Assembly: GCA_017744515.1 (NCBI GenBank)
Contig: JAGIBF010000007.1
Location: 31,538 to 95,537, forward strand
Length of the DNA: 64,000 nucleotides
Source: Niastella sp.
Lineage (GTDB): Bacteria; Bacteroidota; Bacteroidia; Chitinophagales; Chitinophagaceae
Direction of reading: 5' to 3'
The notes under the pieces were generated by a model that was not told where the DNA came from, did not search any database, and saw only the letters and a program-made list of their open reading frames with translations. The position numbers were made by a program, and so were the translations under genes. Shown piece by piece: positions 13,521 through 56,847 of the stretch (positions are counted from its first letter, which is position 1; each line of letters opens with the position of its first letter).

Positions 13521-13658
13521 CTCTATTGTCAATCATTTTTGTCATTTCGACGCCCGGTGTAAATTTAGTGCGTTAAAACATGAGGTAATCAGGGCGGAGA
13601 AACCTGCTTGCGAAGCAAAGGAACCGTCTCACGTCTTACCTTTCACCTCTCACGTTCA

Positions 13659-15053: not shown

Positions 15054-15151
15054 TGTTTTTTTATTAGTCCGAAAGATTGGAAGTCGGAAAGTCCGAAAGT
15101 TCATTCCTGTATGTCTTTCGGTCTTTCCGGCTTTACTGACTTCCCGACTTC

Positions 15152-17845: not shown

Positions 17846-17899
17846 ATGAACATATTTACGCACATACATCACCATCATCATACTTACCCTTCCAGGTAG
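17846..17899 (+). CDS. hisL: his operon leader peptide, 17 aa with six histidines
   Basis: The peptide reads MNIFTHIHHHHHTYPSR and has six His codons in its middle, five of them adjacent. It sits between a strong promoter and a rho-independent terminator, about 600 bp upstream of hisG. This is the textbook layout of ribosome-mediated attenuation: stalling at His codons when charged tRNA-His is scarce favours the antiterminator. The stop TAG lies inside the antiterminator strand (17895-17902), as expected for that mechanism. Confidence 0.85.
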   Translation: MNIFTHIHHHHHTYPSR

Positions 17900-17960: not shown

Positions 17961-17965
17961 TTGCG

Positions 17966-18514
17966 TCTGAACCATGATTAAGTGGATTATAGGGATTAGG
18001 AGGAAATAAAAAGGTTCCTGACATTTTCAATAGGCCTTGATTAGTAGTATTTGGATACGTATGAAAAACCAAATACTTGCTATATGAGTGAATTAAAGTA
18101 CGGTTCAATTACTGAGAGAGTAATTGGTTGCGCGATGAAGGTGCATGCTGCGTTGGGCAACGGCTTTCAGGAGGTAATTTATCAAAGAGCGCTGGCTATT
18201 GAGTTAAGCTATGCACGAGTTGAGTTTGAGCGGGAATTTAGTATGAAGATTTACTACAGGAACGAGGAAATAGGAGAGCGGCGGGCAGATTTTTTTGTAG
18301 ACAAAAAAGTTATGGTGGAACTAAAAGCTTTAACTGCTTTGGAAAATGTACACCTGGCGCAGGGAAAAAATTACTTGGAAGCTTACAATCTTGAGGTAGG
18401 ACTGCTGATAAATTTTGGAGCTACAAGCTTACAATTTAAAAGGCTTGAGAACTTTAAATATAAACCAGGCCCTTATCCTCAAAATCTATAAAATCAAATA
18501 AATCATGGTTCAGA
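17966..18514. mobile_element. inverted-repeat-bounded cassette carrying the GxxExxY gene (putative)
   Basis: The left end TCTGAACCATGATT (17966-17979) is the exact reverse complement of AATCATGGTTCAGA (18501-18514). Similarity continues inward for about 18 more bases (about 12 of 18 matching), giving imperfect 32-bp ends. The left end starts four bases after the attenuator T-tract and the right end touches the hisG start codon. The word AATAAATCATGGTTCAGA (18497-18514) recurs without a gene at 50412-50429. Mobility is inference; no target duplication or transposase was found. Confidence 0.45.
18084..18491 (+). CDS. GxxExxY protein (PD-(D/E)XK-like), 135 aa
   Basis: The motif GNGFQEVIYQRAL (GxxExxY at about residues 25-31), then RRADFFVD (about 72-79) and MVELKAL (about 85-91) match the GxxExxY family, which is thought to have a PD-(D/E)XK nuclease-like fold (D-ExK here: D75, E87, K89). 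Function is unknown. ATG 18084 gives the usual family start MSELKYG; an upstream ATG at 18051 is possible. It sits between the his attenuator and hisG, so it is under His control if read through, and is flanked by inverted repeats. Confidence 0.8.
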   Translation: MSELKYGSITERVIGCAMKVHAALGNGFQEVIYQRALAIELSYARVEFEREFSMKIYYRNEEIGERRADFFVDKKVMVELKALTALENVHLAQGKNYLEAYNLEVGLLINFGATSLQFKRLENFKYKPGPYPQNL

Positions 18515-19365
18515 TGCTTAGAATAGCCATCCAGAAGTCGGGACGTTTGTATGAAGATTCGGTGCAATTGCTGAAAGAATGCGGTATCGACTTGCGCAAC
18601 GTAAAAGACCGCCTGCGAACAGAAGCAGACAATTTCCCACTGGAAGTATTTTTCCTGCGCGATGACGATATTCCTCAATACGTGGAAGACGGCGTGGCCG
18701 ACATTGGTATTGTAGGCGAGAACGTGCTGTTTGAAAAGAACAAGCAAGCCGAAATAGTGGAGAAGCTGGGTTTTGGCAAATGCCGCCTGTCGGTAGCGGT
18801 GCCCCGTGGTCAGCAATATGAGGGCGTAGCTTCTCTGCAAGGCAAGCGCATCGCCACCAGTTATCCCTTTCTCGTTAATTCCTTCCTCGCAAAGAACAAC
18901 GTACAGGCTGAGATCCACGAGATCAGCGGTTCAGTAGAGATTGCCCCCGGCATTGGACTTGCCGATGTGGTGGCCGATCTGGTGAGCAGTGGCTCTACAC
19001 TCTTCATGAATGGCCTGAAAGAAGTAGAAACCATTCTGCAATCACAGTCGGTACTTATCAGGAACAACCAGCTGAATGCAGCACAACAACAATTGCTCGA
19101 TAAGTTGTTGTTCCGTATAAGGGCTGTGAAGAAGGCCAAACGCACCAAATATGTATTGCTCAATGCTCCTAACGAGAAACTGAAAGAGATCATCGGTTTG
19201 CTGCCCGGCATGAAGAGCCCCACGGTATTGCCGCTGGCCCAGGAAGGCTGGAGCAGTGTACATAGCGTGTTGAGCGAAGACACTTTCTGGGATATTATCG
19301 AACAGCTGAAAGAGGCCGGCGCCCAGGGTATTCTCGTGGTCCCCATCGAGAAAATGATAATCTAA
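18514..19365 (+). CDS. hisG: ATP phosphoribosyltransferase (long form), 283 aa
   Basis: First step of histidine synthesis: ATP plus PRPP to phosphoribosyl-ATP, with feedback inhibition by histidine. The length and the C-terminal ACT-like regulatory domain (about 205-283, LNAPNEKLKEIIGLLPGMKS) mark the hexameric long form that needs no HisZ. The PRPP-binding loop DVVADLVSSGSTLFMNGL lies at about 150. An ATG at 18505 is in frame but lies inside a repeat word that recurs at 50 kb; MLRIAIQKSGRL from 18514 matches the family start. First his enzyme after the inserted gene. Confidence 0.93.
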   Translation: MLRIAIQKSGRLYEDSVQLLKECGIDLRNVKDRLRTEADNFPLEVFFLRDDDIPQYVEDGVADIGIVGENVLFEKNKQAEIVEKLGFGKCRLSVAVPRGQQYEGVASLQGKRIATSYPFLVNSFLAKNNVQAEIHEISGSVEIAPGIGLADVVADLVSSGSTLFMNGLKEVETILQSQSVLIRNNQLNAAQQQLLDKLLFRIRAVKKAKRTKYVLLNAPNEKLKEIIGLLPGMKSPTVLPLAQEGWSSVHSVLSEDTFWDIIEQLKEAGAQGILVVPIEKMII

Positions 19366-23265: not shown

Positions 23266-23679
23266 ATGCGAAAGACATTCCTGCTGATTACCTGCGCTGC
23301 TGCCTTCCTGCTGACGGCTGCACAGGTTAAACCTAAACCGGTACCTAAAAAAGTGATGGACAATGGCAAGAAAGTATACGACACCTATTGCCTGCCCTGC
23401 CACCAGCAAGATGGCAGCGGTGTACCCAACATGACCCCCACCTTGATAAAAACAACCTGGGTAACGGGCGATAAAACAAAGCTGGTGCAGGTGATCCTGA
23501 AAGGGTTGAAAGGAGTGGAAGTGGATGGAGAAACGTATGAGAACGTGATGGCCCCCCACGATTACCTCACCGATCAGGAGATCGCCGACGTAACCACTTT
23601 CATTCGCAACAGTTTTGGCAACAAAGCAAGCATGCTCACGCCTGCTGAAGTAAAAGCGATCAGGGCTAAAACGAAATAA
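23266..23679 (+). CDS. secreted c-type cytochrome, 137 aa
   Basis: Signal peptide MRKTFLLITCAAAFLLTAAQ. One haem c site, C42-L-P-C45-H46 in YDTYCLPCHQQDGSG, with a likely distal methionine M95 in ENVMAPHDYLTDQEI. Size matches small periplasmic electron carriers. It is coupled to the dehydrogenase gene upstream (11-bp gap), so it is its presumed electron acceptor. Six bases after its stop the inverted-repeat-bounded insert begins. Confidence 0.88.
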   Translation: MRKTFLLITCAAAFLLTAAQVKPKPVPKKVMDNGKKVYDTYCLPCHQQDGSGVPNMTPTLIKTTWVTGDKTKLVQVILKGLKGVEVDGETYENVMAPHDYLTDQEIADVTTFIRNSFGNKASMLTPAEVKAIRAKTK

Positions 23680-23684
23680 GTACA

Positions 23685-24201
23685 AGAATCCAGAATTTAG
23701 AATCCAGTATTCAGAATAGAATACTGGAAGTGAAGGGCTGATTGGTAGCATGTTAGTTCGATTGCTTAACCTCAATGAATAATTACATGCAACCAGCAAA
23801 ATGTTTCGAAGATTTAATCGTATGGCAGAAAGCACACCAATTCACGATCGGTATTTACAACTATACAAGAAGTTTTCCTCGTGAAGAAGTGTATGGCCTA
23901 ACTTCGCAGTTTAGACGTTCTACAGTTTCTATAGCGGCTAATATTGCCGAAGGGTTTAAGAAGAGGGGTATAAAAGACAAGGCCAAGTTCCTGAATATTT
24001 CCCAAGGTTCATTGGAGGAGTGCAGGTACTACCTGATTTTAGCCCGGGATCTTGGTTATGGTGAGAACCAACAGTTGAAGAATTTACTCGAAGAAGTAAG
24101 CCGAATGCTTGAGTCTTATTATAGTGCTATAACAAAAGGAATTGTTTAAACATTCATAAATCTTTTTTATTCTGAATGCTGGATTCTGAATCCTGAATTC
24201 T
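23685..24201. mobile_element. inverted-repeat-bounded cassette carrying a four-helix-bundle gene (putative)
   Basis: The 34-bp left end (23685-23718) and the 34-bp right end (24168-24201) are inverted copies matching at about 30 of 34 positions, with all four differences transitions. Further ATTCTG words extend the right side to about 24243, and a 9-bp palindrome (CCAGTATTC/GAATACTGG, 23704-23727) overlaps the left end. One gene lies inside. The same word family occurs without a gene near 42756 and 52949. Mobility is inference. Confidence 0.45.
23775..24149 (+). CDS. four helix bundle protein (S23/IVP family), 124 aa
   Basis: Contains FEDLIVWQKAHQFTIGIYN (about 11-29), LTSQFRRSTVSIAANIAEGF (about 43-62) and SLEECRYYLILARDLGY, the hallmarks of the four-helix-bundle family first seen as ORFs in 23S rRNA intervening sequences. 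The Avd protein of diversity-generating retroelements is a relative. Function is unknown; proteins of this type form pentamers or bind nucleic acid. A Met at residue 5 (23787) is an alternative start. It is inserted in the his operon with inverted repeats on both sides. Confidence 0.88.
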   Translation: MNNYMQPAKCFEDLIVWQKAHQFTIGIYNYTRSFPREEVYGLTSQFRRSTVSIAANIAEGFKKRGIKDKAKFLNISQGSLEECRYYLILARDLGYGENQQLKNLLEEVSRMLESYYSAITKGIV

Positions 24202-24246
24202 TATTCTGTATTCTGTCTCCTGTATTCTGTATTCTAAATTTTCTAC

Positions 24247-25386
24247 ATGAAGAGAGTGCTATTCATCGACCGCGACGGTACATTGATCAACGAAGCTCCA
24301 CCAACGTACCAACTGGATTCCTATGAGAAGCTGACCTTTTATCCTGGTATGTTTGAATACATGGGCCGTATCGCCCGCGAGTTCGATTACGAACTGGTGA
24401 TCGTGACCAACCAGGATGGACTGGGTACTGAAGCTTTTCCGGAAGATACATTCTGGCCCTTGCACAACCTTGTGATGAAGAGCCTTGAAGGCGAAGGCAT
24501 TCACTTCAGCGCTACCTATATCGACCGCTCATTCCCCAAAGACAATGCACCTACCCGCAAGCCGGGTACGGGCATGCTGACGCAATACCTCAATAACCCG
24601 AATTACGATATTGCCAACTCATATGTGATCGGTGACCGCATCACCGATGTACAACTGGCCAAGAACATGGGTTGTAAAGCCATCTGGCTGAACAATGATT
24701 CTTCGCTCGGTGCTGGTGAGATCAAGGATAAAGTAGCCGAGTTGCAGCCAGTAATTGCACTGGAAACCACGAAGTGGAGTGATATCTATACTTATCTACG
24801 TCTCGGCCTCCGCCAGGTAATACACGAACGCAATACCAGCGAAACACAGATCAAGATCGAGCTGAATGTAGACGGTAGCGGCAAGGCACGGATCATAACA
24901 GGGCTGGGTTTCTTTGATCATATGCTTGATCAGATCGCCCGTCATGGCAAGATGGACCTTACCATCCGCGCCAATGGCGACCTGCACATCGATGAGCACC
25001 ACACGATTGAAGATACAGGCATTGCATTGGGAGAAGCGTTTGCGCAGGCACTGGCTGATAAACGTGGCATGGAACGTTATGGATTTGCCTTACCAATGGA
25101 CGAAGCAGATGCCAAAGTGCTGATTGATTTTGGTGGCCGCAACTGGATCGTGTGGAATGCGGAGTTCAAAAGAGAAAGAATAGGAGAGATGCCTACTGAG
25201 ATGTTCTTCCACTTCTTCAAATCATTCTCAGATGCCGCCAAATGCAACCTGCATATCGAATGCCACGGCGACAATGAGCACCATAAAATAGAAGCGATCT
25301 TCAAAGCGTTCGCCAAAGCCATCCGCATGGCAGTAAAGCGCGATCCGCTGAGTAATTATCTGCCAAGCACAAAAGGAGTACTCTAA
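24247..25386 (+). CDS. hisB: bifunctional histidinol-phosphatase / imidazoleglycerol-phosphate dehydratase, 379 aa
   Basis: Two pathway steps in one chain. Residues 1-165 are a HAD phosphatase with catalytic Asp8 and Asp10 ([10 protein letters not shown]), removing phosphate from histidinol phosphate. Residues 185-379 form the IGPD, with [16 protein letters not shown], the metal-binding [10 protein letters not shown] and [12 protein letters not shown]. This is the E. coli-type fused arrangement. The gene starts 97 bp after the four-helix gene, just behind ATTCTG repeat words, which may separate it from the hisC transcript. Confidence 0.94.
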
Positions 25387-42566: not shown

Positions 42567-42755
42567 ATTGAAATAAACTTTTAGTAGGGTTGAAGAACAA
42601 CTGCAAAAATCATACTTGAAACCAGATAATATTTCAAAGATACCATAATCGATTGTCTATCAATGACCGAATAGTACTTTTATAACCATTAGAAAACTGT
42701 TAAAACTGCCAGATTGCCTCTTTTCCCCGCAAAGCTGTATGCTTCTGGATTCTGT

Positions 42756-42784
42756 ATACTGTATTCTGAATTCTGTATTCTTGC
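42756..42784. repeat. ATTCTG-word intergenic repeat, 29 bp
   Basis: These 29 bases recur exactly at 52949-52977. Related words occur in the four-helix cassette ends (23685-23718, 24168-24243) and at 47196-47222. Confidence 0.8.
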
Positions 42785-50439: not shown

Positions 50440-50460
50440 GGTCGCTGGAAACCAGCGACC
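50440..50460 (-). terminator. terminator of sucC
   Basis: GGTCGCTGG/CCAGCGACC stem with loop AAA; on the minus strand it is followed by TTTTTTATT (50431-50439). Confidence 0.85.
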
Positions 50461-50491
50461 AATAATCTATAATAAATAATCAATAATCAAA

Positions 50492-51703
50492 CTACGCTAC
50501 CGCCTTACCTACCAGTGCAGCAGCTTCACTCAGCAGAATAGCACTTTGCACTTTCAAACCACTCTCTTCGATGAGCTTCTTGGCCTCTTCAGCATTGGTA
50601 CCTTGCAGGCGCACAATGATAGGCACTTCGATATTACCGATAGACTTGTAAGCATCGATAACACCCTGTGCCACACGGTCGCAACGAACGATACCACCGA
50701 AGATGTTGATGAGGATAGCCTTTACCTTAGGATCCTTCAGGATAATGCGGAAACCAGCTTCTACAGTCGTAGCATTGGCAGTACCACCTACGTCCAGGAA
50801 GTTGGCAGGCTCACCGCCACTCAGCTTGATCATGTCCATAGTGGCCATGGCCAGTCCGGCGCCGTTTACCATACAACCCACGTTACCATCCAGCTTTACG
50901 AAGTTGAGGTTGAACTTGCCAGCCTCTACCTCAGTAGGGTCTTCCTCGCTGATATCGCGCATAGCTTCGAGGTCAGGGTGACGCATCAGAGAGTTGTCGT
51001 CGAGGTTCATTTTGCAATCCACTGCGATGATCTTCTCATCAGATGTTTTAAACAGCGGGTTGATCTCCAGCATGCTGCAATCCAGCCCTACGTACGCATT
51101 ATATAAATTAGTAACAAACTTTACGCAGTTTTTGAAGGCCTCGCCCTTCAGACCAAGGTTGAAAGCGATCTTACGCGCCTGGAAACCTTGCAAGCCACCA
51201 CCGGGGTGAACCCACTCTTTGAAGATCTTATCAGGAGTATTGTGTGCTACCTCTTCGATGTCCATACCACCCTCAGTACTGTACATGATCACGTTCTGAC
51301 CACGGCCACGATCGAGGAGGATTGACAGGTAGAATTCTTTAACTTCATTGGGACCGGGATAGTAAACATCCTGAGCCACCAGCACTTTATTCACCACCTT
51401 ACCGGCAGGACCAGTTTGGATAGTTACCAGCGTTCCGCCAAGAATATTGGAAGCGATCTGCTTGATGTCTTCGGCACTCTTACCCACGGCAACACCGCGC
51501 TGTTCCTTACCCTGGATCTTACCCTTACCGCGCCCACCGGCGTGGATCTGGGCCTTCACCACAGCGAAACTATTACCAAACTGTACTTTGAGGTTCTTGT
51601 ACGCCTCTTCAGCGGCATCAGCCCTGTCTACGGGGATACCTTCCTGAACCGGCACATTGTATTTCTTCAGTAGCTCTTTTGCCTGATATTCGTGGAGATT
51701 CAT
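50492..51703 (-). CDS. sucC: succinyl-CoA ligase, beta subunit, 403 aa
   Basis: ATP- or GTP-dependent TCA-cycle enzyme subunit (succinyl-CoA to succinate). Starts MNLHEYQAKELLKKYNVPVQ; ATP-grasp phrases HAGGRGKGKIQG, VEINPL-type SMLEINPLFK and NGAGLAMATMDMIKLSGGEP, and INIFGGIVRCD are visible. A longer frame reaches 52177, but its extra 158 residues have no family match and this start is the usual one. SucD is not adjacent. Confidence 0.95.
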   Translation of the reverse strand: MNLHEYQAKELLKKYNVPVQEGIPVDRADAAEEAYKNLKVQFGNSFAVVKAQIHAGGRGKGKIQGKEQRGVAVGKSAEDIKQIASNILGGTLVTIQTGPAGKVVNKVLVAQDVYYPGPNEVKEFYLSILLDRGRGQNVIMYSTEGGMDIEEVAHNTPDKIFKEWVHPGGGLQGFQARKIAFNLGLKGEAFKNCVKFVTNLYNAYVGLDCSMLEINPLFKTSDEKIIAVDCKMNLDDNSLMRHPDLEAMRDISEEDPTEVEAGKFNLNFVKLDGNVGCMVNGAGLAMATMDMIKLSGGEPANFLDVGGTANATTVEAGFRIILKDPKVKAILINIFGGIVRCDRVAQGVIDAYKSIGNIEVPIIVRLQGTNAEEAKKLIEESGLKVQSAILLSEAAALVGKAVA

Positions 51704-52922: not shown

Positions 52923-52948
52923 GAAGCCTGTGCGCGAAGCCATTCTGC

Positions 52949-52977
52949 ATACTGTATTCTGAATTCTGTATTCTTGC
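52949..52977. repeat. ATTCTG-word intergenic repeat, 29 bp
   Basis: Identical over 29 bases to 42756-42784; here directly upstream of the phosphorylase promoter. Confidence 0.8.
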
Positions 52978-56582: not shown

Positions 56583-56847
56583 GGCATATAAATTGGAATA
56601 TAAAAGTACAGGCCATACCAGGCCCGGTAAAGGCAAGGCTGTACCGTATGCCGGAAAAAGGTGATGAATTGTTATGATTGTCACGGTTTATCCCGCTATG
56701 CGGGCTAAGCCTGAAGCGCTTTTATCATCTTTAGTTGTCGAAGGATTGCCTTTCTTCCGGACTTTCGGACTCTCCGACTTCCGGACATGATTTTAGGTGC
56801 GTTATTTGCTTATAGATATATAATTTCATGTACGAAAAATAATAAAT

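What the first reader, a model, noticed from the sequence alone, without database searches (positions are those of the whole stretch)
23685..24201. 34-bp inverted repeats bracket a four-helix-bundle (S23/Avd-like) gene in the his operon
Seen: the 34-bp ends match at about 30 of 34 positions in inverted orientation and differ only by transitions. The gene inside belongs to a family first found as intervening-sequence ORFs and related to Avd of diversity-generating retroelements. The same word family occurs without a gene elsewhere. Inference: a non-autonomous gene cassette mobilised in trans.
Basis: partly seen in the sequence, partly recalled or inferred. Interest (0 to 1): 0.75.

Follow-up and report, generated by a model that had tools for sequence, protein, structure and literature searches.

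The report
Helix-bundle genes with cognate heptad repeats
A small gene inside a bacterium's histidine operon sits between mirrored rows of a seven-letter DNA word; most relatives of this gene that were checked, from many bacterial groups, sit between mirrored rows of a short word of their own, and the related genomes checked that lack the gene have almost no such rows, so the protein likely recognises its word and would help spread it through the genome, which is untested.

Summary
The S23 (PF05635) gene between cytochrome c and hisB lies in inverted arrays of an ATTCTGN heptad. The genome's other five S23 genes lack that word but have flanking arrays of other words (four of six pass the score limit). 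Of 156 S23 genes examined, 113 have inverted arms; where the period was measured it is 7 or 8 in 37 of 37 and 50 of 54 loci. Other genes rarely have them (9 of 659; 15 of 420). The G-rich strand points into the gene in 43 of 44 loci. The word follows the protein: pairs at 60% identity or more share it in 30 of 56 cases, below that in 101 of 6,272. Gene-less arrays of the same words are scattered in the same genomes. Of 59 relatives, 11 without S23 have 0-5 heptad-pattern hits; 37 of 39 with a strong S23 have 12-1,263. A congener has an empty site at cytochrome c-hisB. I read this as a gene-and-cognate-repeat system that works like RAYT-REPIN without a transposase. Recognition and copying are inferred. 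Ten library searches listed no paper tying S23 outside rRNA to such arrays.

The parts
23266..23679 (+). upstream neighbour, cytochrome c (PF00034)
   Evidence: ORF list, Pfam
23685..23721 (+). 5' arm: about five heptads (sense CAGAATN, i.e. ATTCTGN on the other strand), starting after 5 nt behind the cytochrome c stop
23775..24149 (+). S23 / four-helix-bundle gene (PF05635, TIGR02436), 124 aa; dN/dS 0.08 against its orthologue in G002 (dS 1.6, near saturation)
   Evidence: AlphaFold model pLDDT 94.6, closest solved fold 2gsc, then 2rld and, weakly, Avd 4dwl
24165..24207 (+). 3' arm: ATTCTGN heptads, inverted copy of the 5' arm
24202..24236 (+). further ATTCTGN array between the 3' arm and hisB
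24247..25386 (+). downstream neighbour, hisB
   Evidence: orthologues in all five genomes of the genus that were searched
42738..42784 (+). gene-less array of the same word; present in G002, absent at the same intergenic place in G001, G003 and G004
52942..52975 (+). array of the same word without an S23 gene; reads as lying between a stop codon and the next start (L327)
13623..13655 (+). gene-less array that best matches the arm of another S23 gene of this genome (GTGA type, L005/L085)
15070..15142 (+). close inverted pair (4-nt spacer) whose word best matches the arm of S23 gene L002/L082 (AAGTCCG type)
50456..50493 (+). gene-less array that best matches the arm of S23 gene L006 (AATAATC type)
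56748..56788 (+). gene-less array that best matches the arm of S23 gene L002/L082 (AAGTCCG type)

Best explanation
The S23 gene between cytochrome c and hisB lies inside inverted arrays of a 7-nt word, most of the relatives examined across bacteria lie inside inverted arrays of short words that go with the protein's own sequence, and the protein is predicted to recognise its word and likely drives the copying of such arrays into intergenic DNA. Shown by calls: the arms, their period, their polarity (G-rich strand running into the gene), the match between word and protein, the scattered gene-less arrays of the same words, the near absence of heptad-pattern hits from the related genomes without S23, the empty site, and purifying selection on this gene. 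Inferred: that S23, whose fold is known as a ring of five (2gsc; five chains also in 2rld) and is shared with Avd, binds the array as DNA or RNA; that binding lets a host polymerase, reverse transcriptase or repair path extend or copy the array; and that arms plus gene move as one cassette while arrays alone move as its dependants, as REPINs are thought to do with RAYT.
For: Flank test in six genomes of the order: S23 28 of 39 at score 30 or more, other genes 9 of 659. Named loci from many phyla: 46 of 73 against 1.46 expected from shuffled partners; with neighbours as control 44 of 76 against 15 of 420, nine of those 15 within 115 nt of the S23 gene. Period: best lag 7 in 30 and 8 in 7 of 37; 7 in 42, 8 in 8, 9 in 3, 12 in 1 of 54. 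Polarity: 43 of 44, and 24 of 26 gene-less close pairs. Word follows protein: 30 of 56 pairs at 60% identity or more against 101 of 6,272 below; mean score 25.7, 1,000 label permutations mean 11.7, maximum 14.6. Gene-less arrays match their own genome's S23 arms 38 of 83 times against about 7.5 expected with foreign arms. Abundance: no S23, 11 genomes, 0-5 hits; canonical S23, 37 of 39 with 12 or more; Fisher 6e-10, within the window's family 1.3e-7. Genus contrast for ATTCTG: 132, 403 and 158 hits with S23, 5 and 2 without, reversed pattern 0. Empty site. dN/dS 0.08. Forecast kept in one case: the published Xanthomonas heptamer GGGAATC (PMC4692102, section 10 read) flanks the S23 gene of Luteimonas, of the same family.
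Against: No biochemistry: no binding, no movement seen. 43 of 156 S23 genes show no arms at the limit used. Direct-orientation matches are also commoner round S23 in the named loci (17 of 76 against 18 of 420; not, 0 of 39 against 21 of 659). Two genomes with a canonical S23 have few heptad hits (G025 9, G041 1) and three with only weak S23 have 13-33. The limits (E 1e-20, 12 hits) were set after seeing the data; only words with AGT or TGA were counted, as overlapping hits. The genus contrast is a single split. G030 has 14 S23 genes but no array in 60 kb of unselected sequence. At the his locus G004 has an array and no S23 gene. The Xanthomonas-order locus of Dokdonella has no GGGAATC arms and XCC0516 itself was not read. 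S23 has no catalytic domain known to me, so a partner enzyme must be assumed. No clear target-site duplication was seen.
Confidence: 0.6

Rival explanations
1. The arrays come first, made by some other agent, and S23 is a passenger that lands in the loops of heptad hairpins, much as S23 elements sit in hairpins of 23S rRNA.
For: Gene-less inverted pairs with 1-140-nt spacers are common and mostly have the same polarity (26 pairs, 24 alike); G004 has an array but no S23 gene at the his locus.
Against: The related genomes without S23 have almost no heptad-pattern hits. The word follows the S23 protein, also between phyla, so S23 would have to choose its word anyway.
Confidence: 0.15
2. An RNA-level element: the arms pair in the operon transcript, an RNase III-type cut frees the S23 message, and the host mRNA tolerates the cut, as with 23S rRNA intervening sequences.
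For: The 572-nt transcript folds with the arms paired (z -4.1, none of 100 shuffles as stable). S23 genes point the same way as both neighbours in 34 of 41 cases against 301 of 588 for genes in general. RNase III excision of the Coxiella intervening sequence, which also has heptamers before its S23 frame, is published (PMC4990558, passages).
Against: Arm differences show no lean to G-U on the sense strand: 43 against 38 and 40 against 68. It does not explain the scattered gene-less arrays, the 7/8-nt period or the polarity.
Confidence: 0.1
3. S23 is a host regulator or chromosome protein and the arrays are its binding sites, spread by selection and slippage, not by S23-driven copying.
For: Purifying selection on the his-locus S23 (dN/dS 0.08); in the loci read, arrays lie at gene ends, in places beside terminator-like hairpins (for example L336); MacGregor proposed regulation for TAACTGA heptamers (PMC4679880, abstract and section 10).
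Against: Arrays come and go between congeners at the same place (one site followed), reach 1,263 pattern hits in one genome, and S23 genes vary from 0 to 16 per genome, which fits a selfish element better than a regulator.
Confidence: 0.12
4. Ordinary polymerase slippage or chance makes heptads everywhere and the S23 link is an artefact of looking there.
For: Heptamers are reported as the most abundant class of such repeats in most genomes, and slippage has been proposed (cited in PMC4679880 and PMC4692102, passages).
Against: Slippage does not make inverted arms of one word on both sides of one gene family, nor a link of word to protein; neighbours are controls.
Confidence: 0.03

Closest known systems
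REPIN-RAYT (REP doublets and REP-associated Y1 transposases)
   Same: A gene with a repeat in its flanking non-coding DNA, whose gene-less copies, singly or as inverted pairs, are scattered through the same genome; each gene has its own repeat class; co-evolution of the two is proposed (PMC3116915, passages).
   Different: S23 is a four-helix bundle with no HUH/Y1 domain match; the repeat is a 7/8-nt tandem array rather than a 20-40-bp palindrome (size from the abstract of PMC3733652 in the listing); Y1 matches number 2-3 in all five congeners while ATTCTG hits differ up to 200-fold.
23S rRNA intervening sequences with an S23 frame (IVS)
   Same: Same protein family, terminal inverted repeats, sense orientation in the host transcript, heptamers before the S23 frame in the Coxiella example (PMC4990558, passages).
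   Different: This one lies in a protein operon, not in rRNA, and has a scattered population of arrays.
Heptamer arrays of Xanthomonas (GGGAATC), Nostoc (GGGGATT) and Beggiatoaceae (TAACTGA)
   Same: Mostly intergenic 7-nt arrays, in Xanthomonas with 70 and 75 convergent pairs in two genomes (PMC4692102 section 10; Nostoc passage; PMC4679880 section 10).
   Different: Neither paper's main text contains 'S23' or 'four helix' (term searches); I saw no partner gene of this family proposed in the parts read.
Avd of diversity-generating retroelements
   Same: Similar fold (4dwl TM 0.73/0.83 at 15% identity, E 0.013; also Avd-like chains of the DGR ribonucleoprotein entries).
   Different: Sequence scores below the Avd and bAvd cut-offs; no reverse transcriptase, template or variable repeat was searched for.

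Membership tests
S23 / PF05635 four-helix-bundle family | profile match over the curated cut-off and four-helix fold | tested here: met
   127 bits against 33.8; model matches 2gsc and 2rld
REPIN-RAYT | gene encodes a Y1 (PF01797) transposase | tested here: not met
   only PF05635 and a weak bAvd hit at E 0.001
REPIN-RAYT | repeats scattered in the genome match the repeats at the gene | tested here: met
   38 of 83 gene-less arrays match own-genome S23 arms, about 7.5 expected
REPIN-RAYT | mobility of the repeats by the gene product | not testable with these tools
   needs an experiment
23S rRNA intervening sequence | located in a 23S rRNA gene | tested here: not met
   between cytochrome c and hisB
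23S rRNA intervening sequence | terminal inverted repeats that pair in RNA | tested here: met
   z -4.1, but no G-U bias
Diversity-generating retroelement accessory (Avd) | profile match to Avd over cut-off | tested here: not met
   25.9 bits against 80
Diversity-generating retroelement accessory (Avd) | neighbouring reverse transcriptase, template and variable repeats | not tested
   the neighbours read at this locus are cytochrome c and hisB; no reverse-transcriptase search was run
DNA transposon or MITE-type cassette | terminal inverted repeats | tested here: met
DNA transposon or MITE-type cassette | target-site duplication against an empty site | tested here: inconclusive
   G003 has a clean 10-nt spacer, but no clear duplication is seen beside the arms

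The most novel reading that the evidence does not exclude
S23 proteins form a word-reading family: each clade reads its own 7- or 8-nt word and, with a host polymerase or reverse transcriptase in the way Avd serves one, writes tandem copies of it at gene borders. If so, heptamer arrays of Xanthomonas, cyanobacteria and Bacteroidota and the S23 intervening sequences of rRNA are one kind of mobile system, and GxxExxY genes with their 9-nt arrays may be a second one built on the same plan.
Probability: 0.35. Interest if true: 0.95.

Novelty: categorically new. Interest (0 to 1): 0.86.

Why it matters
S23 proteins have had solved structures since 2006 (2gsc) with no known function, and heptamer arrays in bacterial genomes have, in the papers I read parts of, no agreed origin. 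The link between the two, with a word that follows the protein, gives the protein a candidate ligand and the arrays a candidate maker. Both can be tested with one purified protein and a handful of oligonucleotides. It would also explain S23 intervening sequences of rRNA as one landing place of a much wider element.

Tried and rejected
Idea that all S23 genes share the ATTCTG ends: rejected, the five others in this genome have other words. RNA stem under selection: no G-U lean. Y1 transposases as the driver: present in all five congeners, 2-3 matches each. Of the 12 Y1 loci, three have one lag-7/8 array within 600 nt on one side and none has arrays on both; two (L154, L161) have an inverted repeat scoring 48 in which no such array was detected; its letters were not looked at. 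GxxExxY as the driver of heptads: in the 39 genomes searched for it, canonical S23 without GxxExxY 6 genomes, 37-990 hits; GxxExxY without canonical S23 5 genomes, 1-33. Scattered 9-nt arrays for GxxExxY, tried with one word only (GCAAAG): 0-11 hits per genome, no link. bAvd as a separate sister family: the PF22296 hits I compared by coordinates are S23 genes already listed there. Small random stretches gave only a modest correlation (Spearman 0.41, 35 genomes), so whole-genome pattern counts were made. The ORF picker dropped the window's own S23 frame: it is not among the 39, and its arrays were counted as solo; one search corrects this. One search was redone as without seven doubly fetched loci and without three arms that I had set by hand. 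Dropped rows: seven of 80 named loci for short flanks; 5 of 30 GxxExxY loci without a matching frame; 22 of 59 S23 loci below the limit before the period count. Ten paper searches listed no paper that ties S23 genes outside rRNA to heptad arrays; several of these lists were capped, I judged by listings, and the library holds open-licence papers only.

Full report
What is there. The S23 gene at 23775-24149 lies between cytochrome c (23266-23679) and hisB (24247-25386), all on the plus strand. Its flanks pair over 43 nt at 84%. The score of 54 compares with at most 31 in 2,000 shuffles. The arms are arrays of a 7-nt unit, ATTCTGN, and a further array of the same word fills the space before hisB. 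In this genome the pattern ATTCTGNATTCTGNATTCTG, up to two mismatches, has 132 hits; the reversed pattern has none.

Not one repeat but a rule. The genome holds six PF05635 genes. None of the other five has ATTCTG flanks, but arrays of other short words lie round them: AAGTCCG, GTTTCG, CGGCAAT, GTGA and ATTATTC types (by eye). By score four of the six reach 30; L002 reaches 27 and L003 only 20, although arrays are detected on both sides of L003 (stretch L083). In 40 stretches of 20 kb centred on S23 genes of six genomes plus the window, 28 of 39 S23 genes reach 30 against 9 of 659 other genes; in direct orientation 0 of 39 and 21 of 659 (the window's own S23 frame was dropped by the ORF picker and is not among the 39). 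In a set of 59 S23 loci, 37 reach 30, and their arms have best lag 7 in 30 and 8 in 7.

Across phyla. Of 73 with enough flank, 46 reach 30 against 1.46 expected when partners are shuffled; direct orientation reaches it in 16, which shows how repetitive some flanks are. Best lags are 7 (42), 8 (8), 9 (3) and 12 (1) among the 54 at 27 or more. With the neighbouring genes as control the figures are 44 of 76 and 15 of 420, nine of those 15 being within 115 nt of S23 and so likely sharing an arm; in direct orientation 17 of 76 and 18 of 420. Hosts with arms include Proteobacteria, Nitrospirae, Acidobacteria, Planctomycetes, Clostridia, Chloroflexi and candidate phyla. On plasmids 43 records have a match; I fetched 12 loci, 11 cyanobacterial and one Azospirillum. 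Six score 29 or more (five at 30 or more, permuted 95% point 29); three more (Trichormus, Nostoc C052, Aulosira) carry CAGAAT/CAGGAGT heptads with a short second arm and miss the limit in that call.

A forecast that held once. Heptamers GGGAATC are known in Xanthomonas, with 70 and 75 convergent pairs in two genomes (PMC4692102, section 10 read); the S23 crystal structure 2gsc is from Xanthomonas. I wrote down beforehand (note) that S23 genes there should be flanked by GGGAATC. XCC0516 itself was not reached. Luteimonas, of the same family, has arms GAGCCGGGAATCGGGAATGG; Dokdonella does not show it.

Polarity. Read 5' to 3' into the gene, the two arms together have more G than C in 43 of 44 loci. 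The 26 gene-less close pairs behave alike in 24. The Xanthomonas pairs are described as convergent.

The word follows the protein. Of 156 S23 genes examined, 113 have arms at 28 or more. Pairs of these with protein identity of 60% or more share the word (score 26 or more) in 30 of 56 cases; pairs below 60% in 101 of 6,272. The mean word score of the 56 is 25.7; 1,000 label permutations gave a mean of 11.7 and at most 14.6. Some of the pairs above 70% are probably orthologues in congeners, where common descent is enough. Others are not: the window's S23 shares its word with S23 genes of two cyanobacterial plasmids at 62-63% identity (scores 27 and 26) and with one of another genus (G030) at 65% (score 30). 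The 8-nt words GTTCACNT and GTTGATNG also go with protein pairs at 69% and 63%.

Scattered arrays. Lag-7/8 arrays away from S23 genes match the arms of S23 genes of their own genome in 38 of 83 cases in six genomes; the same number of foreign arms gives about 7.5. In the window itself, gene-less arrays best match the arms of four different S23 genes of the genome. The 43 inverted array pairs found in the fetched stretches fall into two groups: 26 with spacers of 1-140 nt, too short for the gene, and 17 with 262-467 nt, of which 16 hold an S23 frame (many stretches were chosen for S23).

Arrays go with S23. In the genus, three genomes with S23 have 132, 403 and 158 ATTCTG hits; two without have 5 and 2. 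For 59 relatives I summed two general heptad patterns (AGTNNNN and TGANNNN, five units, one mismatch; each is the other's reversed control, so both sums count arrays). Without S23: 11 genomes, 0-5 hits. Only weak S23 matches (best E above 1e-20): 9 genomes, median 1, range 0-33. Canonical S23: 39 genomes, median 120, 37 with 12 or more; exceptions G025 (9) and G041 (1). Spearman 0.675 with the S23 count; Fisher 6e-10; inside the window's family 22 of 23 against 1 of 13, elsewhere 15 of 16 against 2 of 7. The cut-offs were chosen after seeing the numbers and hits overlap. GxxExxY (39 genomes) and Y1 transposases (five genomes) do not explain it.

Coming and going. At cytochrome c-hisB, G003 has a 10-nt spacer, G000 and G002 have arms plus S23, G004 has one array and no S23, and G001 has what reads as hisC next to hisB, with neither. 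A gene-less array at 42738-42784 is present in G000 and G002 and absent from G001, G003 and G004. The S23 protein of the his cassette is under purifying selection (81% identity, dN/dS 0.08 between G000 and G002, with dS 1.6 near saturation). S23 genes run with both neighbours in 34 of 41 cases, against 301 of 588 for genes in general.

Structure. The model (pLDDT 94.6) matches 2gsc, 2rld and, more distantly, Avd (4dwl, E 0.013). The ring of five is reported for the Xanthomonas protein (PMC4990558, passage) and both PDB entries have five chains. Five subunits and arms of about five heptads may be a coincidence.

Mechanism. I commit to a gene-and-cognate-repeat system: S23 reads its word and promotes the copying of arrays, in the manner proposed for RAYT and REPINs. 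Shown: the association, period, polarity, code-like link and co-occurrence. Inferred: binding, copying, and movement as a cassette. An RNA-stem role is possible besides (fold z -4.1), but the arm differences do not lean to G-U pairs.

Novelty. The two papers on heptamer arrays that I searched contain no mention of S23 (term searches), and ten library searches listed no paper on S23 outside rRNA with such arrays (some lists capped). The nearest published hint I saw is three GACAGAT heptamers before the S23 frame of the Coxiella intervening sequence (passages).

Noticed in passing
window 17963-17997 and 18483-18517, around 18051-18491: The GxxExxY gene (PF13366) before hisG also lies in inverted repeats, here of a 9-nt pattern (GATTnnnnn); 12 of 25 GxxExxY loci in relatives score 30 or more against 0.54 expected, and of the 18 at 27 or more the best lag is 9 in 10 and 8 in 4. 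The right arm runs over the hisG start.
   Followed up: partly
window 17846-17899: A 17-codon frame with five histidines in a row, likely a his operon leader peptide, upstream of the GxxExxY insertion (read).
   Followed up: no
L379 and L384: On two cyanobacterial plasmids S23 genes sit inside CRISPR operons, between cas6 and cas4 and between cas10 and a Cmr3-family gene, with heptad or octad arms.
   Followed up: partly
L010, L336, L020 (genome of the window): In the loci read, ATTCTG arrays without S23 lie at gene ends, singly or in pairs, with other sequence and in places a terminator-like hairpin beside or between them.
   Followed up: no
L154 and L161: Two Y1 transposase loci have a strong inverted repeat (score 48) in which no lag-7/8 array was detected.
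   Followed up: no
random stretches of G001, G002 and G003: Arrays of period 11 occur in this genus, also in the genomes without S23.
   Followed up: no
L223: A Saprospiraceae contig holds two S23 genes side by side, one with 9-nt arms (TGAACGTAA type), an exception to the 7/8 rule.
   Followed up: no
relatives G008, G032, G014, G035 and others: Several S23 copies carry stop codons inside, so decay of copies seems to be going on.
   Followed up: no
L142 6518-6862: The one long-spacer inverted array pair (262 nt) without an S23 frame.
   Followed up: no
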